Below, one piece after another: positions 4,390 to 30,341 of a stretch of 35,816 nt of DNA (position 1 is its first letter; each line of letters opens with the position of its first letter). The translations under genes were made by a program, and so were the position numbers. Below the pieces are notes generated by a model. That model was given only the letters and a program-made list of their open reading frames with translations. It searched no databases and was not told the DNA's origin. Origin of the DNA: an uncultured bacterium (GTDB taxonomy: Bacteria; Cyanobacteriota; Vampirovibrionia; Gastranaerophilales; Gastranaerophilaceae); assembly GCA_949288725.1 (NCBI GenBank), contig CASELF010000043.1:1-35816 (forward strand), written 5' to 3'.

Positions 4390-5190
4390 ATGTTATCAAT
4401 TCAACCAAGTATTACAAATCAAACAATACGCAAAGCACCTGTTTTTAAAGGTGACACATCATCAAATACTATTGATGAACATTTATACGAGTCCAAGAGA
4501 GATTATTACGAAGGTCAAAAAAATGAATTCGAAAGCATTCTTAACGACGAAAGAACAGTAAAACCGTTAAAAGATATCGCAAGAGTTTTCAAAGTAATCT
4601 CTGAGATATTGTTTGAAGGTTGGGCTGTTGCTTGGGGTGCTTCTAAAGGTGCAAAATTTGTAAAATCATCTGTTGTAGGTGGTATAAACAGTAACGTCGG
4701 AAAAGGCATTAAAAATGTGTTAAAACCTTTAGGTAAAGGAATTGTTGCTGCAGGTGAAAAAATTGCACAATATGCACAAGCAACTGTTAAATATGTTAAA
4801 GCGACACCTACGTATGCTAAATTCCAAAAGAATGCAGCTGAAATTATCGAAAAAATGGATAATAACAAATATGGAAAAATTGCATTAAAAGCCTTAAATA
4901 CTATATACAATGGAGTTGAAGAAGTTGCAGGTTGGGTTGTTAAACCGTTTAAGAAATTTGCAGCAAGTCTAAAGAATACCTCATTTGATGCTGCGTATGA
5001 CAAAGCAGCAAAAGCAACCTCAACTACATTAGGAGTAGGTGCTGGTGCTACTTGCGGTTATAACGAAGTAATGCACCCTGAAAGAGCAAATGTAAATGAG
5101 CAGGAAGAAACTGAAAAGGTTGCAGAAGATAGAAATGATGTAGACTTAGATGATGAAACTCCTGAAGCGTTGGATGAGGAGGTAGAATAA
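4390..5190 (+). CDS. Unknown 266-residue protein with N-terminal VFKG motif and acidic tail
   Basis: No family recognised. The N-terminus carries KAPVFKGDTSS (about residues 15-25), resembling short motifs at the same place in four other unknown proteins here. The middle (about 60-230) is rich in Ala, Gly and Lys and reads as long amphipathic helices without a clear membrane span; a Gly/Ala-rich stretch (GVGAGATCGYNE) lies near 216-227. The last 35 residues are strongly acidic. It overlaps the next gene by one base (TAATG) with GAGGAGG just upstream, so the two are translationally coupled and their products may work together. The Shine-Dalgarno of this gene is weak (GTGAGG at about 4377-4382). 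The overlapping frame opening at 4301 looks like a shadow. Confidence 0.7.
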   Translation: MLSIQPSITNQTIRKAPVFKGDTSSNTIDEHLYESKRDYYEGQKNEFESILNDERTVKPLKDIARVFKVISEILFEGWAVAWGASKGAKFVKSSVVGGINSNVGKGIKNVLKPLGKGIVAAGEKIAQYAQATVKYVKATPTYAKFQKNAAEIIEKMDNNKYGKIALKALNTIYNGVEEVAGWVVKPFKKFAASLKNTSFDAAYDKAAKATSTTLGVGAGATCGYNEVMHPERANVNEQEETEKVAEDRNDVDLDDETPEALDEEVE

Positions 5191-5693
5191 TGATTTCTTC
5201 TGTAGTTCAACCAATTAATTTTACATCAAGTCAGGCACAATCTGTACAAGAACAACGTAAAGATAAGCAAGAACAAGTTGCTACAGGTATTGGTGGTGCA
5301 GCAGGTGTTACTGCAGCAGCAACAAAATATGCAGGAAGAAAAGGTTTAAAAGCACAAGCAGGTGAGAAATTCTTAGGTGAACTTTCCGGACAAGTTGCTA
5401 ACGGGATAAAAGGTGTAAACAAAACTCAACAGGTTGCAGAAGGTTTTATTGCATCTTTCAAACAAAATCTAAAAATGTATTCTGCAAGTATTATGGAACA
5501 CCTTAACAAGTTCAAAAATACAAAAATTATCGGTTCAATTGTAAAAAGCCCGATTGCCAGAAAAGCATCTTTCTTATTTGGTGGCGCTTTAGCCTTCTTT
5601 GTTTTGGTTACCGGTGTTAATAAAGCGTTTGAAAACGGACAAATTGCAGTTGAAGATTTTAAACAACAATATAGAGATTTTAAAAATATGTAA
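5190..5693 (+). CDS. Unknown 167-residue membrane protein with N-terminal INFTS motif
   Basis: No family recognised. The protein begins with VQPINFTSSQ (residues 7-16), followed by a polar Gln/Lys segment, a Gly/Ala-rich stretch (about 32-50), and one convincing transmembrane helix at about 126-144 (FLFGGALAFFVLVTGV). The C-terminus is short and charged. There is no N-terminal signal peptide. The start overlaps the preceding stop by one base and is preceded by GAGGAGG, so coupled translation is likely. The Gly/Ala stretch recalls the C-terminal GVGAGATCGY segment of the partner protein, perhaps a shared helix-packing element (inference). Confidence 0.75.
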   Translation: MISSVVQPINFTSSQAQSVQEQRKDKQEQVATGIGGAAGVTAAATKYAGRKGLKAQAGEKFLGELSGQVANGIKGVNKTQQVAEGFIASFKQNLKMYSASIMEHLNKFKNTKIIGSIVKSPIARKASFLFGGALAFFVLVTGVNKAFENGQIAVEDFKQQYRDFKNM

Positions 5694-18578: not shown

Positions 18579-18935
18579 ATGGAAATTAGTAGAATTGATG
18601 CTGTAAATTTTGCAGCAAAACCGTCTAAGAACCTTGAACAAATTACCACTAAGGTATTTAAGAAGTTGAGTGCAGTAAGAGGCAATAAATTAGGAACCTA
18701 TCTTGGTACAACTCAAAATGGTGATAATGTTACTATTAGAGAAACAAGTTTAGGTAAAGCCGCTGATTTTTATGTATCTTATTCAGACAAAATGAACAAA
18801 GGAGCAAAAAAATTTGATATATTTCATATAACAAAATCAACAGATGCTCCTGCAAAAATTGTGTCTGATGAAGGCAAAAAGGCTTCAAAAAGTGATGTTG
18901 CTCAAATTGGACGTATGATTGATACTCTTGTATAA
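18579..18935 (+). CDS. Unknown 118-residue protein with N-terminal VNFAAKP motif
   Basis: No family recognised. The start ISRIDAVNFAAKPSKN carries the short hydrophobic-N-F-x-A motif (residues 9-13) shared with other small unknown proteins in this window. The rest is a compact, basic, soluble domain with probable beta strands (GTYLGTTQNGDNVTIRETS) and a helical C-terminus. There are no Cys and no membrane helix. It has its own strong promoter (TTGACA/TATATA), a good GGAG ribosome site and a hairpin downstream, so it is a well-expressed single gene of unknown role. Confidence 0.75.
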   Translation: MEISRIDAVNFAAKPSKNLEQITTKVFKKLSAVRGNKLGTYLGTTQNGDNVTIRETSLGKAADFYVSYSDKMNKGAKKFDIFHITKSTDAPAKIVSDEGKKASKSDVAQIGRMIDTLV

Positions 18936-22236: not shown

Positions 22237-23103
22237 CTAGAATTCTTGTAATTTTTCCATAACAGATTCAATGACATTTGGAGGTGTTGAGGCTCCTGCT
22301 GTTACGGAAATTTTATTTGCATTGTTTATTATCTCTTTATACGCTGATAATTCATCAGAAGTTTCAATGTGAATTGTCTTTGTTATATCTGATAAAATTT
22401 CAGCAAGATGGGTTGTGTTAGCGCTTTTTTTAGAGCCGACCACAACCATCAAATCACTTTTTTTTGCCAGTTCTTTTGCTTCTTTTTGGCGTGCTGAGGT
22501 ACTTCCGCAAATTGTGTTTGCGATTAAAAGTTCTTTTGCAAGTGGTGTTAAATAATTGACTATGCTATTTAGTGTTGTAATCATTTGAGTTGTCTGGACA
22601 ACTACACCTATTTTTTTATGTACTTTTAATTCATTTATGTATTGTTCTAATTCTTGCGTAGAATCGGCAACAATAACATTTTTGCTGAATTGGAGAGCAT
22701 TTGCTTTAATTGCAATGACTTCAGGGTGTTGCGCTTTGCCTACAATTACGAGATAATACCCGTTTTTCGCAAGTTCAATTGCTTTTTGCTGAACCTTTTT
22801 AACATCAGGACAAGTCAAATCATAAACTTCAAATCCTGCTTTTTGAATTTGTTCAAATACTTCAGGACTTTCTCCATGACTTCTGACAACACAAATTCCG
22901 CTACCTTTTGAAGGTAGTTCTTTCAAAGAAGTAATGCCCAGATTTTCTAATTCTTTTATGACTTGGGAATTGTGGATAAGTTCTCCAAGTACACATATGT
23001 TTTTATCAGGGTTTTCTGATTTAAGATTTTTAACAGTTTCAACGGCTCTTCTAACGCCGTAACAAAAACCTGCACATTTCGCTAATTTAATTATTTTCGG
23101 CAA
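22237..23103 (-). CDS. ispH: 4-hydroxy-3-methylbut-2-enyl diphosphate reductase
   Basis: Last enzyme of the MEP isoprenoid pathway; a 4Fe-4S reductase making IPP and DMAPP. The conserved cysteines appear in KCAGFCYGVRRAV (C14 is the cluster ligand), DLTCPDVKKVQ and ANTICGSTSARQKEA. Other signatures are GELIHNSQVI, RSHGE and TAGASTPPNVI. The length of 288 residues is normal. The only suitable start is a TTG at 23103-23101 with a weak AAGAAG ribosome site, suggesting modest translation. A 5' hairpin lies at 23122-23152. Co-transcription with rpsA is likely. Confidence 0.96.
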   Translation of the reverse strand: MPKIIKLAKCAGFCYGVRRAVETVKNLKSENPDKNICVLGELIHNSQVIKELENLGITSLKELPSKGSGICVVRSHGESPEVFEQIQKAGFEVYDLTCPDVKKVQQKAIELAKNGYYLVIVGKAQHPEVIAIKANALQFSKNVIVADSTQELEQYINELKVHKKIGVVVQTTQMITTLNSIVNYLTPLAKELLIANTICGSTSARQKEAKELAKKSDLMVVVGSKKSANTTHLAEILSDITKTIHIETSDELSAYKEIINNANKISVTAGASTPPNVIESVMEKLQEF

Positions 23104-23187: not shown

Positions 23188-26100
23188 CTAGCCCCAGTAA
23201 ATAGTGCCACGTTTTTGTTTATCGTAGTCTCTGCCAAAAGGTAGTTTCGTAGCGCCTGCTGAACCTATTTCCCAGTCAATGTCATTATCTTCCGGAGTAT
23301 AAGTTGCATAAACTGATGATGGAGGAACTTTAACACCTGCTTGCATTCTTCTTATGTTAGATTCCCATTCATCAGAACCTGGCTGAGTTTTAGAATTACT
23401 ATTGTTAGTAAATTCATCTAATTGCGTTTCATCTGTTGTGTCATAAAAGGGTTCTAACCCATCATCATAAAATTGCTCATTTCTTTCATTTGAGGGTTTT
23501 TTATTATTCGAAGCCTCTGTGGGTTGGTTTGAGGTTTGATTTACGGTTTGGGTGCTTGTTGTATTAAACCCGAGTTTATCAGCGTACATGCCGATTTCTC
23601 CGCCCTCTGAACCTGTATATTGTGTTTGAGCAAATCGTGCTTTTACAAGTGCTTGTCGTTCATCAAGTGGCAAGTATTTTAAGTAATGATTAAAATCACT
23701 ATTGCTCATAGATGAAATGTTTTTCAGTACATACTCTTTCAAAACTTTATAATCTACTGATGATAAATCAGTAATTTGATGTGCCGCAAGCATTTCAGAA
23801 ACCGTAGTTGGAGGTAGTAAATTAAGTAGTTCGGATTTCAATGTTGAACTTCCGCATTTAATGTACAAGTCTTTGATAATTTCTTTGCTTCCGTTGTTTT
23901 CTGCAAAGTTATGAATTGCTGCAGCACTTCCATTTGTTGCAAGTATATCTACAAATTTGTTTTGTACTTTGGAACCATAAATTGAAACAAGTTTTGTATA
24001 AAGATCATTAATACTTGTTGCATTAGCAACCAAATTCCTTACGATTGCTTTTGCTTCACTTGTTGCCATCGGATCTTCTAATACATCATCAATTACACCT
24101 GAAGTTACTGCTGTTTTTAGTGTTTCTATATCATTAGAATTCAATGTTTGATTGTGCGTCTTTTCCCAATCTTTAATTGAGTTATCAATATTAGTTTTTG
24201 TATCAGCCGCATTGCTCATAGCATCTGCCTTTTTAGCAGATGAGGTTTCTTGAGTTCTGCTTGTAGAACTTGTAGTAGAAGTCTTTATACTATTTGAAAC
24301 TGTCGAACTTGATGTAGTTGACGGTGTGCTAATATTATCATTATTTATTTGTGATATTGTTTGTTGATTTTGTGTTGATGCTGTCGCTGATGCCGTAGCA
24401 GCCGGTTGCGTTGGTACAGTAGCATTAGTAGGTTGCTGAGTTTGAGCAGGTTGTTTTGCTTCAGCTGCACGATTTGCATTATCAGCATTAGAAACTTTAG
24501 CATTAGAATTGTCTGCACCTTTTTCAGGGATTGATTTGTCAGCTAATGTTTCTTGGCTTATATTTCCTGATTTTAATGCATTCCTAATTTTGTTAGCATC
24601 AGAACTTGAATAATTGCCTGATGATATAGCATTTTCAATTATCTTATTATATTGAGATCTATAATTTGAATCGATTGAATCGGATGCCGCAGCAACACCT
24701 TCTGTGATTGCCGAATTACCAAAATTTGATAATTGCTCAGCAAAATATAATTGAGTATCAGTACCTTGATTTTTTGCTTCTGTAATGAATTCTTCAGAGA
24801 AGGTTGCCCAAGTTGCCTTTGGAACAATATTCATTTCATTAACATTACGAAGTATGTTGGTTGCATCTTCTTTTTCCATGTAGTTTTGCATACCATAAGT
24901 CATTGCTTTTCTGCTATGATCATGTTCCATACAGTTTGCAGTTAAATGTGCTGTACAGTCTTCAGTTGTAAATCTGGAGGCAATTGAGTACATTTTACCG
25001 CCTCTTTTATGGTCGGAGGTTTCCTCTATTGATTTACTGATTTTACCTGCATCGTTTTGAGCAATACCGCTGACTCCTAATGCATCATAAACAGTTTGTC
25101 GATATTTTTGCATTTCTTCAGGTGTACAATATTTACTTAATGCATTTAATATACTTTCGGTATTTTCACCTTTATTACTTAGAATTTTTGCAAGCAAAAA
25201 TTCTTCCATTGCTTCTGGGTCTTTTCCGTACAGTTTATATGCAAGTTCTACTGCATCATTATCTGAACGTTTTGTAATATCAGTTTGTCTTGCTAATCTT
25301 GCGGCTGGACTGTTAAGGCTTATATTTTCATACCTTTCGTCAAGTTGCATCATTACTGCAGATTCTTTTTTTATTCTTTTTTCATATTCAGATAATTTTC
25401 TTGTTTTTTCCTGTTCTGTTAAATATTTATGTACGTCTTTGGGCTTAGGGTCTGTTATCCCTTGTTTTTGTAATTGTGTATAGATGTCTTTTTGGCTTAC
25501 TAATACTTCTTTGAAATCTTCAACTGCTCCTCGGTGATTTATTTTTAAATCTGGATCTGCGAGATTTTTATCTATTAAAGCCACCAATTTTTTGTTAGCA
25601 TCAATTGATGTAGAATATTCAGCCATATAATCTTTAATTGTTATATCTTCGGGTTGCTCTGCAAAATCTTTTAAAACCCATGTTAAGCATTGAAATTGTA
25701 CATTTCGGTTTTCTCTTTCCTTATCTAAATTTATACGTGCTGTATTTTTATTTTCAATGCTAATAGGAATACCCATCATATCCAGTTTATCTTGCAATTC
25801 TTTTTGTACAAATGCTACTTTTTCTCTTGGTTTCATATTGGCATATTCTTCATTATCTGCAAAAAGAATATCTCCTATAGCCATCATTTGATCATTTATA
25901 TCTCTGCCATTTGCGAATTCTTTTCTTTTTAATAATTCTTGAATGCCCTTTTTCATTTGGTTGCTTACTGCAATATCTGCTTTTTGTGCAATAGCCTTAT
26001 CTGAAAAATCTTTTATAGATTCTCCTTTCCTATTTGCATCATCAAGAATTGATATTGCAACAAATGCTGTAGTATTAGGTTTGCGTCCATTTCTACTAAT

Positions 26101-26892
26101 TGTATTTATAAATTCGTTTGTCTTTTGTAAACTATATTCTTTCTTTTCTTCATCTGATAATTTTGCATATTTAGGGTCATTTGCTGTTAAATATGCATCC
26201 ATATAGATATTTACTTTTTCTTCTGGAGTTTTATTTTTGAATTCTGTTGATAATGTTACCGCTGTTGGAAGTAAAAATGGTTTTTGATTTTGTTGTTCAG
26301 TTTGAAACTCAGTTTGTGATGGTTTTAAACCTTGAAAGCCATTATCTAGTAATGTATTAAAAGTCTTTAGCATTTTGCTTTGTTCTGCTGTCAGTTCAAC
26401 TCCGCTTTCTTGTAATTTAACTAGATAGTCATAAACATCTCCTTGAGTCGGTTTTTCAATCCCCCGTTGTTTTAGAGTTTCAATAATATCTTGTTTTGCT
26501 GTAATTTCTGCTTTTGTTGCATCATTACTGCTTGCTGCATTTTTTGTTTGAATATCTTCACCTGATGCTATCATTGTTCTTTGCTCAAATTCTGCAGCAA
26601 CTTTTTTAGCATTTTTTAATGTTTCACTTAATTCTTTATCAGATAAACCTAGACCATATTTTTCTTTGAATGCTTTTAATTGTTCTTCTTCTGACAAATT
26701 TTTAAACTCTTCAGAATTCAGAAAATCGAGGATTTCAATATTTTTCTTAGATTCTTGAGTTGTTTTGTCAGTTGTAAAGTCAATTGGTTTTGTGTTTTGT
26801 TCTTTAACTTCTGCTACCCCGTTATTATTTTGAGTTTGGGTAGTTTGTTGCACCACTTCTTTTTGTTCAAGTTTGCTTAAATTTAAATCCAT
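23188..26892 (-). CDS. Large low-complexity protein of unknown function (1234 residues)
   Basis: No family recognised, and there is no signal peptide or membrane helix. The N-terminal ~660 residues are helical and charged. They contain a diverged internal repeat: residues 135-160 (LKQRGIEKPTQGDVYDYLVK) and 469-495 (LQKQGITDPKPKDVHKYLTE). A compact metal-site-like cluster C646-x2-H649-x4-C654-x2-H657-x-H659 follows. Residues ~790-890 are a Ser/Thr/Gln/Ala linker. A second helical domain covers about 900-1110, and the tail is polar with a distinctive end (KLPFGRDYDKQKRGTIYWG). The ribosome site is weak. It is a single long gene between ispH and the tandem paralogues; size and composition suggest a structural or secreted role, without proof. 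Confidence 0.75.
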   Translation of the reverse strand: MDLNLSKLEQKEVVQQTTQTQNNNGVAEVKEQNTKPIDFTTDKTTQESKKNIEILDFLNSEEFKNLSEEEQLKAFKEKYGLGLSDKELSETLKNAKKVAAEFEQRTMIASGEDIQTKNAASSNDATKAEITAKQDIIETLKQRGIEKPTQGDVYDYLVKLQESGVELTAEQSKMLKTFNTLLDNGFQGLKPSQTEFQTEQQNQKPFLLPTAVTLSTEFKNKTPEEKVNIYMDAYLTANDPKYAKLSDEEKKEYSLQKTNEFINTISRNGRKPNTTAFVAISILDDANRKGESIKDFSDKAIAQKADIAVSNQMKKGIQELLKRKEFANGRDINDQMMAIGDILFADNEEYANMKPREKVAFVQKELQDKLDMMGIPISIENKNTARINLDKERENRNVQFQCLTWVLKDFAEQPEDITIKDYMAEYSTSIDANKKLVALIDKNLADPDLKINHRGAVEDFKEVLVSQKDIYTQLQKQGITDPKPKDVHKYLTEQEKTRKLSEYEKRIKKESAVMMQLDERYENISLNSPAARLARQTDITKRSDNDAVELAYKLYGKDPEAMEEFLLAKILSNKGENTESILNALSKYCTPEEMQKYRQTVYDALGVSGIAQNDAGKISKSIEETSDHKRGGKMYSIASRFTTEDCTAHLTANCMEHDHSRKAMTYGMQNYMEKEDATNILRNVNEMNIVPKATWATFSEEFITEAKNQGTDTQLYFAEQLSNFGNSAITEGVAAASDSIDSNYRSQYNKIIENAISSGNYSSSDANKIRNALKSGNISQETLADKSIPEKGADNSNAKVSNADNANRAAEAKQPAQTQQPTNATVPTQPAATASATASTQNQQTISQINNDNISTPSTTSSSTVSNSIKTSTTSSTSRTQETSSAKKADAMSNAADTKTNIDNSIKDWEKTHNQTLNSNDIETLKTAVTSGVIDDVLEDPMATSEAKAIVRNLVANATSINDLYTKLVSIYGSKVQNKFVDILATNGSAAAIHNFAENNGSKEIIKDLYIKCGSSTLKSELLNLLPPTTVSEMLAAHQITDLSSVDYKVLKEYVLKNISSMSNSDFNHYLKYLPLDERQALVKARFAQTQYTGSEGGEIGMYADKLGFNTTSTQTVNQTSNQPTEASNNKKPSNERNEQFYDDGLEPFYDTTDETQLDEFTNNSNSKTQPGSDEWESNIRRMQAGVKVPPSSVYATYTPEDNDIDWEIGSAGATKLPFGRDYDKQKRGTIYWG

Positions 26893-26996
26893 TTTCTATA
26901 CTCGTCCATAAACTTAAAAAATTCCATCTAAATATTAATAACGGTATTTTTTATATACAAATTCAATACTTCAAAAAAAAATTTACAAAAATTAAT

Positions 26997-27028
26997 AAAA
27001 AGGATATGTTGTACAACATATCCTTTTT
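26997..27028 (-). terminator. Terminator of the first tandem paralogue (perfect palindrome)
   Basis: A 32-base perfect palindrome centred at 27012/27013. The hairpin has about 14 bp and ends in a T run on either strand, so it may stop transcription both ways. It lies about 29 bases past the stop of the gene at 27057. Confidence 0.85.
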
Positions 27029-27056
27029 ATTTTATATAGATTCAAAAAATAATATA

Positions 27057-27818
27057 CTAATAACTTGTAGTCACAGTAGGTCTTAATTGTGCAGATTTAG
27101 TTTCTGAATATTTTATACTTGTAAAATTCTTCATAGAGGAATAATTAGCCAATAAATCAATCAACGTTTGAGCACATTCATCAGGTAGTCGAACTTCTTC
27201 TTTTGTTGACTTAAATTTACCATTCGGTAATTTTTGTATTGATCTGACAATCACACCACAATATTCCTTTTCTTTGCCTAAATCGTGATAAATTAACTCT
27301 TGAACGAATGGTAATTGTTTTCCATTCTCATTTCTAAATCCCTCAGGAAATACAGAAACTTTACTTACATTATCTGAACTCTTTAAGCCACTATATACAA
27401 TATAATGTTTTTTCCCATCTTTCATAAAGGTATCAGTGTGGTATATTCTGTGTCCATTAAGAGCAGCAACTCCAAATGGCGGATTTATTTGATTTGTAGG
27501 AGGGACATTAAATTCAGGAGAAATAGTGCTCATTTCATCTAATTCTTCTGAATCAATCGGAATAGGTGTAATAATTTCAGTTTTTTCACCTTCCATTTCT
27601 GATAAATTATTAACCGGTGTTTTTGCATTCATCATCGCTGGTGACATTGCCATTAACACAATAACCGGCACTTTTGCTAAATTATTTGAACTTCTGTTAT
27701 ATTCAACAGGTGAACCTTCTGTATCACCATTATTTTTTCTTCTGTTATAACCTGAAAAACTTACATTATTTGCTGCACCAAAAACAGTGCTTGCAACTGA
27801 TATCGGCATTACTACCAT
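27057..27818 (-). CDS. Unknown 253-residue protein, tandem paralogue A
   Basis: The N-terminus contains NNVSFSGYNRRKN (residues 17-29), a short motif seen in other unknown proteins here. A hydrophobic stretch (VPVIVLMAMSPAMM, about 50-63) could be an internal membrane or signal segment. Then comes a Thr/Pro/Glu-rich linker and a C-terminal domain (about 110-253) with FGVAALNGHRIY, YIVYSG, VFPEGFRNENGK and ELIYHDLGKEKEYCGV. Its first ~95 codons, leader and promoter are almost identical to those of paralogue B (27996-28754), but the C-terminal domains differ widely. AAAGGAG precedes the ATG. No family recognised. Confidence 0.78.
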   Translation of the reverse strand: MVVMPISVASTVFGAANNVSFSGYNRRKNNGDTEGSPVEYNRSSNNLAKVPVIVLMAMSPAMMNAKTPVNNLSEMEGEKTEIITPIPIDSEELDEMSTISPEFNVPPTNQINPPFGVAALNGHRIYHTDTFMKDGKKHYIVYSGLKSSDNVSKVSVFPEGFRNENGKQLPFVQELIYHDLGKEKEYCGVIVRSIQKLPNGKFKSTKEEVRLPDECAQTLIDLLANYSSMKNFTSIKYSETKSAQLRPTVTTSY

Positions 27819-27841
27819 ACTAAACTCCTTTTTTGCTTCTT

Positions 27842-27862
27842 TAGGTTCCTTCCATTAACCTA
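27842..27862 (-). promoter_or_regulatory. Conserved leader hairpin, copy A
   Basis: A perfect 6-bp inverted repeat (27842-27847 with 27857-27862) with a 9-base loop lies between promoter and ribosome site. The same hairpin occurs in copy B at 28778-28798. Confidence 0.4.
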
Positions 27863-27884
27863 TTTTTTACACTAAACTTCTATG

Positions 27885-27912
27885 ATTATATCTGTAAATT
27901 TATTTTTGTAAA
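27885..27912 (-). promoter_or_regulatory. Promoter of tandem paralogue A
   Basis: On the minus strand TTTACA (27912-27907) and a perfect TATAAT (27890-27885) are 16 bases apart. The copy in front of paralogue B has the same boxes with 17 bases between. Confidence 0.65.
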
Positions 27913-27933
27913 GATTTGCTTTTTACATAATTT

Positions 27934-27971
27934 ACTAAAAGAGATAAATATTAATATTTATCTCTTTTAGT
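27934..27971 (-). terminator. Perfect 38-base palindrome after paralogue B (terminator-like)
   Basis: Arms 27934-27952 and 27953-27971 are exact inverse complements and can form a long AT-rich hairpin. It lies 25 bases after the stop of paralogue B and 22 bases upstream of the -35 box of paralogue A. The T-rich part is inside the stem and not after it, so termination strength is uncertain; it could also be a binding site. Confidence 0.55.
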
Positions 27972-27995
27972 GAAAATTATTATTGAAAAATATTA

Positions 27996-28754
27996 TTACA
28001 TTTCAACTTTAGTTGGTCTTAAATGCGGTGATTGGGTTTTTGAATATGATATGCTTGACATGTTTTTCATTTCTGTATCACCTGCCATAAAATCAATTAG
28101 GTTCTGTGCAACTTCATTTGGCAAACGAATTTCTTCTCTTACATTTTTTACTTTTCCATTTTTTAATACTGTATCAGCGGAAACAAATACTCCACAAAAT
28201 TCTTTGCCTTTGCCTAAATCGTGATAAATTAATTCATGCACTATAGGTAATAACTTACCATTTTCATTTCTAAAACCTTCTGGAAATACTGTAACACTAT
28301 TAACGTATTTAGAATTTTGTCTTCCACTATAAACTATATAATATTTTTGTCCTTTACTAACAAAAGTTTCAGCTTTGTATATCTTTCGCCCAATAAGTTC
28401 TGCTACCCCAAAAGGAGCTTTTACTTGTTCTGGACGTGGTTCAGAGAATACTGACGGACTTGCTGTCATTACATCTAATTCTTCTGAATCAATCGAAATA
28501 GGTGTAATAATTTCAGTTTTTTCACCTTCCATTTCTGACAAATTATTAACCGGTGTTTTTGCATTCATCATCGCTGGTGACATTGCCATTAACACAATAA
28601 CCGGTACTTTTGCTAAATTATTTGAACTTCTGTTATATTCAACAGGTGAACCTTCTGTATCACCATTATTTTTTCTTCTTTTATAACCTGAAAAACTTAC
28701 ATTATTTACTGCACCAAAACCAGTGCTTGCAACTGATACAGGCATTACTACCAT
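27996..28754 (-). CDS. Unknown 252-residue protein, tandem paralogue B
   Basis: Paralogue of the gene at 27057-27818 with the same layout: NNVSFSGYKRRKN near residues 17-29, hydrophobic VPVIVLMAMSPAMM, acidic/Thr linker, and a C-terminal domain with FGVAELIGRKIY, YIVYSG, VFPEGFRNENGK and ELIYHDLGKGKEFCGV. The C-terminal domain is clearly homologous to paralogue A but only roughly half identical, whereas the first ~95 residues differ at only about six positions. It has its own TTTACA/TATAAT promoter and AAAGGAG ribosome site, so the two genes appear to be separately transcribed but controlled alike. No family recognised. Confidence 0.78.
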   Translation of the reverse strand: MVVMPVSVASTGFGAVNNVSFSGYKRRKNNGDTEGSPVEYNRSSNNLAKVPVIVLMAMSPAMMNAKTPVNNLSEMEGEKTEIITPISIDSEELDVMTASPSVFSEPRPEQVKAPFGVAELIGRKIYKAETFVSKGQKYYIVYSGRQNSKYVNSVTVFPEGFRNENGKLLPIVHELIYHDLGKGKEFCGVFVSADTVLKNGKVKNVREEIRLPNEVAQNLIDFMAGDTEMKNMSSISYSKTQSPHLRPTKVEM

Positions 28755-28777
28755 ACTAAACTCCTTTTTTGTTTCTT

Positions 28778-28798
28778 TAGGTTCCTTCCATTAACCTA
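28778..28798 (-). promoter_or_regulatory. Conserved leader hairpin, copy B
   Basis: The same 6-bp inverted repeat (28778-28783 with 28793-28798) as in the leader of paralogue A, with an identical loop. Confidence 0.4.
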
Positions 28799-28821
28799 TT
28801 TTTTTACACTAAACTACTATG

Positions 28822-28850
28822 ATTATAGCAGTAAATTCTTTTTTTGTAAA
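28822..28850 (-). promoter_or_regulatory. Promoter of tandem paralogue B
   Basis: TTTACA (28850-28845) and TATAAT (28827-28822) on the minus strand are 17 bases apart. The boxes are kept although the spacer differs from copy A at several bases. Confidence 0.65.
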
Positions 28851-28880
28851 GATTTGCTTTTAACAAATCTTAATTTCCTG

Positions 28881-30341
28881 CTAAAATTTGTCTTCGTGTG
28901 TTGTTAACCCCAGTGTTTTATTGTTGTCTATTTCTATAATATGCTTTATTAAAGCGTGTGCCATAAGCAGCAAATATGGATTAATTTCAGTAGTTTGTGA
29001 CATATTAACTGATGCAGTTTGTTTTATTCCTTCATTTTGTTTTATGTTTTCATCTGTTTTAAAACTTAACACTGAATCCATGGCATAATAAGTTTGTTCT
29101 TTTTCAATTCGTAATTTTAATTCTTTTTTCGGGAAAGTTTCTGAGCATTCTATCGATACTTGAACAGAATTTGAGGTTTCTAAAATGAGTGTTGATCTAA
29201 CAGTTCCATAATTTACTGTGGTTACTGTTATTACTAGAATGCTATCATTTTCTTGGTTTTCAGAATTTGTTTTTTCTTCAATTTCTATATCAAAATTTAC
29301 ACCATCTTCAAGCGGCAGCCATGGTAAATATAATAATAGAAATAATTTAAGTGTTTTTTGCGGATTGTTTTCTGCCGCAACTGATATACTTGCATTAATA
29401 AATTTTGCCATTTCTTTCATCTGCGAAAGATCTTCAATACCTGATTTTGAAACTTCGGTCATCGACATAATAATTTTAGTTATGGCATCTTTTCCGTTTT
29501 TTTGTATAAGTTGAGAAATTTTGCCCAAACTTATCATACAACCGGGATTTATTTCTAGTTTTTTGAGTGTTGCTTGAAGTTCTTTTGCAAGCACAATCTC
29601 TGCGGTTTCTTCTGTCGTTGTCGCATTAGGATCATAAATCTCTGCCAAAAGTTTTGAATTTATTGCTTCTTGTGTTTTCTTTTGAATATTTAAGTTCCCA
29701 TTATTCATCACCTGACCTGATAAAATATTCTGTGCAACGGTTTGCTGAGGTGTTAGTGGTTGTTGATTTTGTGAGGCACCGCCTGTCATCGATGTTTGGG
29801 GTTGTGAGTTTTGACCTTGTTGATTTATATTTTGCATATTTTGTTGATTTGGGGCTTTCTGTGTTAGGTTTTGTATAGTTAAGGTCTTTGTGTTCGCATT
29901 ATTTAGGTATGCTTGTTGAGAAAGTATTTGGGACTCAATATTAGAGATTGTTTTTCCTTGCGTTTGCGGTGTTTGCGCTTGCGATAGTTGTTGTTTTGCA
30001 AGTTCATTAGATAATTCTTTTCTTGACAAATTTCGTTGAACCATATAAATAAATTCATTAACATTTTTAGGCAAATTGAGAACGTCTTTTAAATACGTTG
30101 CTCTATCAGCATTTTCCAATACATTTAGTTTAAAATTCTGAACAGCAGTTTTAATATTTTGTCCAATGTGATTGAGTGCATTTTGAGATGGAAGATTAGG
30201 ACCAGACGTATCCATTTCTACACGAGCAGGAGTAGTTTGTATATTTGAGGAAGCAGTCGAACTTGTCCCTGTCGTTGAGGGTTGTCGGTTGTAATTCTGC
30301 GAAAAACTGTTCAAAAATTTTTTGATATTTATGCCGGACAT
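28881..30341 (-). CDS. Gln/Asn-rich protein with possible FliK-like C-terminal domain
   Basis: A 486-residue protein. Residues ~10-45 and ~115-225 are Gln, Asn, Ser and Thr-rich and probably disordered. The segment from about 240 to 330 is helical. A hydrophobic patch (LKLFLLLYLPWLPLEDG, about 335) leads into a beta-rich domain (about 350-430; ITVTTVNYGTVRSTLILE, then VQVSIECSETFPKKELKLRI). This order of a disordered front and a small beta-rich domain with a 'G-x-V-x-x-x-L' strand recalls flagellar hook-length control proteins, but the match is weak and no other flagellar gene is present. No clear Shine-Dalgarno precedes the ATG. It lies 32 bases downstream of the GNAT gene and may belong to that operon. 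Confidence 0.6.
   Translation of the reverse strand: MSGINIKKFLNSFSQNYNRQPSTTGTSSTASSNIQTTPARVEMDTSGPNLPSQNALNHIGQNIKTAVQNFKLNVLENADRATYLKDVLNLPKNVNEFIYMVQRNLSRKELSNELAKQQLSQAQTPQTQGKTISNIESQILSQQAYLNNANTKTLTIQNLTQKAPNQQNMQNINQQGQNSQPQTSMTGGASQNQQPLTPQQTVAQNILSGQVMNNGNLNIQKKTQEAINSKLLAEIYDPNATTTEETAEIVLAKELQATLKKLEINPGCMISLGKISQLIQKNGKDAITKIIMSMTEVSKSGIEDLSQMKEMAKFINASISVAAENNPQKTLKLFLLLYLPWLPLEDGVNFDIEIEEKTNSENQENDSILVITVTTVNYGTVRSTLILETSNSVQVSIECSETFPKKELKLRIEKEQTYYAMDSVLSFKTDENIKQNEGIKQTASVNMSQTTEINPYLLLMAHALIKHIIEIDNNKTLGLTTHEDKF

What the first reader, a model, noticed from the sequence alone, without database searches (positions are those of the whole stretch)
27057..28861. Tandem paralogues with near-identical promoter, leader and N-terminal half but diverged C-terminal half
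About 390 bases (27536-27924 and 28472-28861), covering promoter, leader, ribosome site and ~95 codons, differ at only ~15 positions. The rest of the two genes is roughly half identical at protein level. A simple duplication would diverge evenly, so either gene conversion has homogenised the 5' halves, or the C-terminal domains are being swapped or diversified behind a constant front, as in modular effector or surface-protein families. The constant part contains the NNVSFSGY motif and a hydrophobic segment, which is consistent with a delivery module.
Basis: seen in the sequence. Interest (0 to 1): 0.55.

Follow-up and report, generated by a model that had tools for sequence, protein, structure and literature searches.

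The report
Swapped C-domains behind constant secretion front
In gut bacteria related to cyanobacteria, one small, probably exported protein keeps its front end but has had its back end repeatedly exchanged between species by recombination, and this genome carries two versions side by side, which is what you would expect of a protein whose changing face matters to viruses, hosts or rivals.

Summary
Genes A (27057-27818, -) and B (27996-28754, -) are 97% identical over codons 1-95 and 65% over codons 113-253 (DNA), with a sharp break. Of the two readings offered, domain swapping behind a constant front is supported.

By its nearest named relatives the genome is a Gastranaerophilales draft. The family sits at one conserved locus (ribE-ribBA-GNAT-p486-[gene]-BIG-ispH-rpsA), normally one close copy. 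In seven close species pairs DNA homology enters the gene, stops at codon 65-92 in the predicted disordered linker, and resumes near the gene's end or at residue 681-713 of the neighbouring ~1000-1480-aa gene BIG. The C-domain tree rejects groupings that flank genes or fronts support (AU p down to 4e-13; one group not rejected). B's C domain equals that of another species, G030, at 123/123 residues, including 323 bp with one mismatch against ~14% background divergence.

The pair is best read as a recent tandem duplication whose copies carry different C-domain alleles. Outside the genus the front occurs on very different backs, followed by a BIG-sized gene in the 18 loci examined. No family or fold matched. 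Function (exposed recognition protein, or competition factor) is inferred, not shown.

The parts
27057..27818 (-). gene A, 253 aa: constant front + C domain (allele A)
   Evidence: ORF; family; no match above cut-off in Pfam/NCBIfam, none in PHROGs/PADLOC
27996..28754 (-). gene B, 252 aa: constant front + C domain (allele B)
   Evidence: ORF; 70% identical to A overall
27534..27818 (-). constant front of A, codons 1-95 (N-motif, hydrophobic segment, linker start)
   Evidence: AF2 pLDDT <50 for nearly all of residues 1-110
28470..28754 (-). constant front of B, codons 1-95
27060..27482 (-). C domain of A, codons 113-253
   Evidence: AF2 block pLDDT 85-96 over residues 121-253
27999..28418 (-). 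C domain of B, codons 113-252
   Evidence: residues 113-235 identical to G030 (123/123)
28081..28403 (-). cross-species tract: 323 bp with 1 mismatch to G030; longest such tract in the ~25 kb compared
27885..27912 (-). sigma-70-like promoter of A (TTTACA-16-TATAAT)
   Evidence: 14 sites found vs 11.9 in shuffles, but only this and B's score 11/12; a similar pair is seen by eye, uncounted, in many of the leaders
28822..28850 (-). sigma-70-like promoter of B (TTTACA-17-TATAAT)
27842..27862 (-). leader hairpin of A (TAGGTT/AACCTA)
   Evidence: z 0.22, not significant alone; a related GGGG-loop hairpin covaries in other genus leaders
28778..28798 (-). leader hairpin of B
   Evidence: z 0.14, not significant alone
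27931..27974 (-). palindrome between B and A, candidate terminator of B
   Evidence: (flagged by the scan on the + strand only); resembles the hairpin after the single G030 gene
26994..27031 (-). terminator-like hairpin after A (sequence different from B's)
23188..26892 (-). BIG, 1234 aa, predicted all-helical (residues 1-800); variable partner gene
24943..26892 (-). N-terminal ~650 residues of BIG: the part replaced in other species pairs (not replaced between this genome and G030)
28881..30341 (-). p486, conserved gene upstream of the locus
   Evidence: match within 1.8 kb upstream in 23 of 40 other genomes
22237..23103 (-). ispH, conserved right flank

Best explanation
A and B are two alleles, side by side, of a polymorphic locus of the Gastranaerophilaceae that normally holds one close copy. 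Shown for several species groups: the front (promoter, leader, N-motif, hydrophobic segment, linker start) goes with the species, while the folded C domain is replaced by recombination between species, with its left junction in the linker; a second variable block, the N-terminal part of the next gene BIG, is replaced in the same way, sometimes in one ~2.5-kb piece with the C domain and sometimes separately. Inferred for this genome: a tandem duplication after the split from G030 left two fronts still 97% identical, and the copies carry different C-domain alleles; B's C domain was recently shared with the G030 lineage. Inferred for function: the hydrophobic segment exports the protein, the C domain is the exposed recognising or recognised part, and rare-allele advantage (phage, host or competitor pressure) drives the swapping.
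For: Conserved locus. G006/G021/G024: DNA homology from upstream to small-gene codon 83-92, none until BIG residue 681-713, then 90-93% again. 11 of 21 cross-genome pairs with front identity >=0.58 (A and B counted apart) have C identity <0.40. AU tests on the C-domain tree reject {G006,G021,G024} p=4e-13, {A,B} p=1e-4, {G029,G042,G041} p=1e-4; the front tree holds G006/G021/G024 and A/B together, the flank-gene tree G006/G021/G024 and G029/G042/G041. Inverse case: G024/G020 C 0.87, front 0.60. B C domain 123/123 aa to G030, fourfold sites 40/45, against 0.50-0.76 in nine other window genes and 0.55 in BIG. The folded domain begins just after the break.
Against: {G010,G008,G012} was not rejected as a C-domain clade (p=0.23), so fast divergence may contribute. 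The groups tested were picked from identity tables of the same data, and the flank tree is a 'quick' one with 13 rows under half filled. In the front tree G031 joins G029/G042/G041. The front is itself more alike between G000 and G030 at fourfold sites (0.82-0.86) than the other window genes compared, so it is not simply clonal. C domain and BIG are not always swapped together and their identities correlate weakly (rho 0.28). Export, exposure and any selective agent are untested. The genomes are fragmented drafts.
Confidence: 0.72

Rival explanations
1. Old duplication with gene conversion: A and B diverged long ago as paralogues and their 5' halves have recently been homogenised inside this genome.
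For: C domains of A and B are saturated at fourfold sites (6/33) while fronts are 36/38 identical; the front is also unusually alike between species.
Against: The nearest relatives with DNA held beyond the gene (G030, G033) show one gene, so an old pair needs losses; C domains are also replaced in genomes with one close copy, where no close paralogue is there to act. G032's contig ends just after the gene, so it cannot vote.
Confidence: 0.2
2. Polymorphic competition system (works like CDI/Rhs): the C domain is a toxin or effector domain swapped for new weapons; tandem copies are stored or intermediate alleles.
For: Constant front with exchangeable C domain; C domain near-identical in another species; tandem copies (also three in genus g17); one invariant His (41/41) and a near-invariant Glu (38/41) in a domain of ~25% mean identity.
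Against: No toxin, immunity or defence family matched; no small immunity gene, BIG begins within 79-169 bp in 38 of 40 other genus genomes and the contig ends in the other two; the C domains of the genus are one alignable family rather than unrelated toxins.
Confidence: 0.15
3. No exchange: the C domain simply evolves very fast in place.
For: C domains remain one homologous family; the G010/G008/G012 clade is not rejected.
Against: G006/G021/G024 have mostly 90-100% identical upstream DNA but 0.27-0.34 C identity; near-identical C domains in otherwise diverged genomes (G030/B, G024/G020).
Confidence: 0.03
4. Assembly artefact: the second gene or the break is a chimera of strains or species.
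For: Draft of 102 contigs; B carries a tract near-identical to another species.
Against: B's linker and 3' end match neither A nor G030 closely, unlike a two-way chimera; longest exact A/B run 74 bp; breakpoints in the same part of the gene recur in other assemblies.
Confidence: 0.05
5. Diversity-generating retroelement mutates the C-terminal half.
For: Variable C-terminal domain; G000 has one RVT_1 reverse transcriptase, G006 two, G021 one.
Against: G010 and G030 have no RVT_1 match, although G010's C domain is among those that differ strongly from its sisters'; differences include indels over the whole domain; the RT of G000 is on another contig. Template repeats were not searched.
Confidence: 0.02

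Closest known systems
S-layer cassette (slpA) of Clostridioides difficile
   Same: A hypervariable cassette of adjacent genes at a fixed locus, with recombinational switching cited in the paper's references; SlpA is a likely phage receptor (PMC8809339, passages; other titles seen as a listing).
   Different: No S-layer or cell-wall-binding family found here; the variable part is the C domain of a small protein plus the front of an unrelated helical protein; different phylum; no receptor role shown.
CDI / Rhs polymorphic toxins (cdiA-CT/cdiI exchange)
   Same: Constant front, exchangeable C-terminal domain, tandem 'orphan' copies, and a proposed exchange through tandem duplication (PMC3150448, passages).
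   Different: No TPS/Rhs carrier, no VENN string in A or B (by eye), no small immunity gene, no toxin family match; C domains are one homologous family.
Extended signal peptide region of autotransporters and two-partner secretion
   Same: Long N-terminal region ahead of a signal-peptide-like segment (starts of abstracts).
   Different: No C-terminal beta-barrel in the model of this 253-aa protein; that the motifs differ is recalled.
DUF4329 (PF14220)
   Same: Weak partial match, A residues 181-231, E 0.028.
   Different: 14.8 bits against a cut-off of 28.6; seen in 1 of 12 members.

Membership tests
CDI/Rhs-type polymorphic toxin | Constant front with exchangeable C-terminal domain | tested here: met
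CDI/Rhs-type polymorphic toxin | Large TPS or Rhs carrier on the same polypeptide | tested here: not met
   253-aa protein; no such family in Pfam/NCBIfam
CDI/Rhs-type polymorphic toxin | Cognate small immunity gene directly after the C domain | tested here: not met
   a large ORF, BIG, follows within 79-169 bp in 38 of 40 other genus genomes
CDI/Rhs-type polymorphic toxin | Toxic activity of the C domain | not testable with these tools
   needs an expression assay
C. difficile-type S-layer cassette | Variable genes exchanged as a block at one locus | tested here: met
   but C domain and BIG block can also move separately
C. difficile-type S-layer cassette | Secreted S-layer protein with cell-wall-binding repeats | tested here: not met
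   no such Pfam/NCBIfam family in A, B or BIG
Autotransporter / TPS with ESPR | C-terminal beta-barrel translocator or TPS domain | tested here: not met
   C domain ~135 aa, strands plus one helix; no family match
Sec-exported protein | Cleavable signal peptide | tested here: inconclusive
   hydrophobic segment at residues ~47-63, often a small residue before the putative cut (by eye; hydropathy); no signal-peptide predictor at hand
Diversity-generating retroelement target | Reverse transcriptase beside the variable gene | tested here: not met
   RVT_1 only on another contig in G000, none in G010 or G030; template repeat not searched
Known protein fold or family for the C domain | Significant structural match | tested here: inconclusive
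   Foldseek PDB best E 0.017, BFVD best 0.066, VIA-align best Z 4.7

The most novel reading that the evidence does not exclude
A so far undescribed diversification system of gut Gastranaerophilaceae: a two-gene hypervariable locus in which the C domain of a small exported protein and the N-terminal half of a giant helical partner are recombined between species as adjacent cassettes, the constant front and the constant tail of BIG acting as recombination arms, with tandem two-allele states like this window as the intermediates of switching.
Probability: 0.3. Interest if true: 0.8.

Novelty: new variant of a known kind. Interest (0 to 1): 0.62.

Why it matters
Repeated cross-species exchange of one domain is the usual mark of a molecule in an arms race. 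The family is found in 42 of 46 genomes of the genus, has no name in the four family libraries used, and belongs to gut bacteria whose surface biology is, as far as I recall, little known. It points to a specific candidate for phage receptor, host-facing antigen or competition factor, and the window shows a two-allele state that would be the expected intermediate of allele switching.

Tried and rejected
Sequence families: for A, B, BIG and p486 nothing above cut-off in Pfam or NCBIfam (sub-cut-off matches only, e.g. DUF4329 with A, TIGR04440 with p486), nothing better than E 0.2 in PHROGs, nothing in PADLOC; 12 family members in Pfam, three families in one member each, none better than E 0.017; eight other-genus fronts, sub-cut-off matches only. 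Solved-structure sequence search: none for A3 and p486, two chance-level for BIG. Fold search of A and of BIG 1-800 (best E 0.023, mostly large helical proteins): nothing significant; absent families are not excluded. Phage and plasmid searches with A, viral contigs with A2: no relative.

Homology of other genera's backs to this genus's C domain: hhalign probability 18%, E 0.0014 with 14 backs, and 0.1%, E 0.4 with seven others; left open. BIG-like ORFs of other genera are recognised by position and size; only 1 of the 18 matched a BIG profile (E 1.7e-7).

A general N-terminal motif as export tag: in 336 ORFs of G030 the enrichment depended on the pattern (observed vs expected 2 vs 0.7, 8 vs 2.2, 17 vs 7.2, 24 vs 13.8, 6 vs 1.2, 5 vs 2.6); not claimed. 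C domain-BIG coevolution: rank correlation only 0.28; not claimed. Rfam: no match. tRNA: none. One search read minus-strand loci in the wrong orientation; redone.

Full report
WHAT IS THERE. Genes A (27057-27818, -, 253 aa) and B (27996-28754, -, 252 aa) each have their own promoter-like site, leader and Shine-Dalgarno-like sequence. From about 105 bp upstream to codon 95 they are nearly identical (codons 1-95: 96.8%); over codons 113-253 the DNA is 65% identical. Fourfold sites are 36/38 identical in the front and 6/33 in codons 113-253. The longest exact shared run is 74 bp. The genome has no third copy at E<=0.01.

WHO CARRIES IT. The window is one contig of an unnamed draft genome (G000, 102 contigs). 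Of 11 loci from genome contigs, two are titled Candidatus Gastranaerophilales (one of them the contig of G030), one uncultured cyanobacterium, one uncultured Prevotella, and seven an unnamed bacterium. With protein A, 41 of 46 genomes of the genus match; a front-only profile adds G001, which sits at the same locus, so 42 of 46. Only G000 has two close copies; profile searches show a distant second copy in G004 and G040 and weaker partial matches in G037 and G020. Of 40 other genomes fetched, a p486 match lies within 1.8 kb upstream in 23, ispH 3.1-4.5 kb downstream in 32, and a large ORF, BIG, begins 79-169 bp after the stop in 38; in the other two (G009, G032) the contig ends there.

CONSTANT FRONT, EXCHANGED BACK. 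Mean pairwise identity over the genus is 0.91 for S1, 0.87 ribBA, 0.75 GNAT, 0.72 ispH, 0.63 p486, 0.31 front, 0.25 C part, 0.21 BIG. Of the 21 cross-genome pairs with front identity at least 0.58 (A and B counted apart), 11 have C identity below 0.40. In G006/G021 the DNA is 80-100% identical in each 100-bp bin from -1500 to +300 and 38-59% after that. blastn gives no match from codon 92 of the small gene to residue 681 of BIG, then 93% again; G006/G024 and G021/G024 stop at codon 83 and resume at BIG 685 and 713; G042/G029 stop at 78 and resume at 683. In G010/G008/G012 there are two separate blocks, small-gene codons 65-83 to 192-237, and BIG residues ~80-104 to ~860-1026 with short matches inside, with conserved DNA between the blocks. 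In G039/G034 and G022/G021 the C part is still alignable but BIG's N-terminal part is not; in G043/G045 and G042/G041 homology runs through the whole small gene. So two neighbouring variable blocks are replaced, sometimes together and in some pairs not at all. In the pairs with a replaced BIG block, most 50-residue blocks of the first 650-850 residues are 8-50% identical, rising to mostly 50-98% towards the end.

TREES. Flank-gene and front trees both group G006+G021+G024 and G010+G008+G012, and put G030 beside this genome (flank tree: with G032, unresolved). On the C-domain tree {G006,G021,G024} is rejected (p-AU 4e-13), as are {A,B} (1e-4) and {G029,G042,G041} (1e-4); {G010,G008,G012} is not (0.23); {B,G030} and {G024,G020} have 100/100 support. 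The groups were picked from identity tables of the same data.

THE WINDOW'S OWN HISTORY. G030 has one gene at the same place. Against G030, nine other window genes are 0.50-0.76 identical at fourfold sites, BIG 0.55, fronts 0.82-0.86, B's C domain 0.89 with 123/123 residues, A's C domain 0.18. The stretch 28081-28403 has one mismatch in 323 bp, the longest such tract in the ~25 kb compared; next comes 25460-25674 inside BIG, 215 bp. B's linker and last residues match neither A nor G030 closely. The hairpin after B resembles the one after the G030 gene, while the DNA after A's hairpin resembles the DNA after G030's (by eye), as expected if a unit [promoter-gene-terminator] was duplicated in tandem. 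A's C domain falls with those of G032, B and G030 (100/98). The order of duplication and replacement is not resolved.

STRUCTURE. AlphaFold2 (12 sequences, mean pLDDT 68) leaves almost all of residues 1-110 below 50 and folds 121-253 at 85-96 per block: strands, one helix, strands. The break thus lies in the linker before the folded domain. His178 is present in 41 of 41 rows and Glu208 in 38 of 41. No significant fold match. BIG 1-800 is predicted almost all-helical, pTM 0.38, most confident at ~650-790, about where the constant part resumes.

BEYOND THE GENUS. The whole-family profile matches 97 of 288 family genomes; the listed matches outside the genus cover the front, mostly residues 1 to ~55-125, in ORFs of mostly 180-490 aa. 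A front-only profile matches 155 of 383 genomes in 18 of 41 genera, own genus included. Fronts share M-x-I-x-P-V-S ... N-x-x-F-x-G ... VP-x-x-VLxAMSP. In 18 of 19 loci examined a 759-1053-aa ORF follows the front gene; the exception is G004's second copy, the only one of the 19 from this genus; a twentieth fetched piece (L094) was not examined. Genus g17 has three tandem copies whose fronts differ clearly from one another.

HOW IT PROBABLY WORKS. Shown, for several groups: recombinational replacement of the C domain and of BIG's N-terminal part between species. Inferred: export by the hydrophobic segment; an exposed C domain; diversifying selection. My estimate for an exposed recognition or target role is about 0.4, for a competition effector about 0.15.

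WHAT IS KNOWN. It works like the C. difficile S-layer cassette (PMC8809339, passages) and like cdiA-CT exchange, where tandem duplication was proposed as the intermediate (PMC3150448, passages), but defining features of both were tested and not met. Searches for Gastranaerophilales; for Melainabacteria with secreted/recombination/surface/genomes; for Gastranaerophilaceae with hypervariable; and for allelic exchange of hypervariable C-terminal domains listed no report of such a locus (listings only, showing 25 of 467 and 12 of 8,449). One termite-gut genome paper was read by passages (PMC5877343). The library holds open-licence papers only.

Noticed in passing
L040 7986-8618; G384:C33:15819-16025 (L183); L184 (G500:C81:64597-65241): Truncated copies, two of the three keeping much of the hydrophobic segment and the C domain but not the N-terminal motif, lie in 2 of 249 genomes of the genus of a Prevotella-titled record, the two larger ones as AT-rich islands in GC-rich DNA. 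Either transfer between phyla or assembly chimeras.
   Followed up: partly
5' leaders of the genus loci; 27842-27862 and 28778-28798 in the window: A leader hairpin with GGGG loop 19-36 bases before the start in 17 of 42 entries (one of the 17 pairs poorly; one of the 42 has no leader held); in 13 distinct sequences 4 of 7 pairs change on both sides and 0 of 500 shuffles reach the covariation score, though 27 of 500 reach the count of such pairs and 222 the number of pair types. The window's version has another loop and is not significant alone.
   Followed up: partly
25460-25674: A second tract, inside BIG, with 1 mismatch in 215 bp to G030.
   Followed up: no
5190-5693 (+), 18579-18935 (+); also L125, L126, L129, L130, L165, L166, L168, L173, L175, L177: Other proteins begin with a similar short motif (such as PVS ... 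N-x-V-x-F-x-G/S-K), several followed by a hydrophobic segment; may be a lineage-wide N-terminal signal. Enrichment in 336 G030 ORFs is weak and pattern-dependent.
   Followed up: partly
28881-30341: p486, a conserved Q/N-rich protein next to the locus with no family match above cut-off.
   Followed up: no
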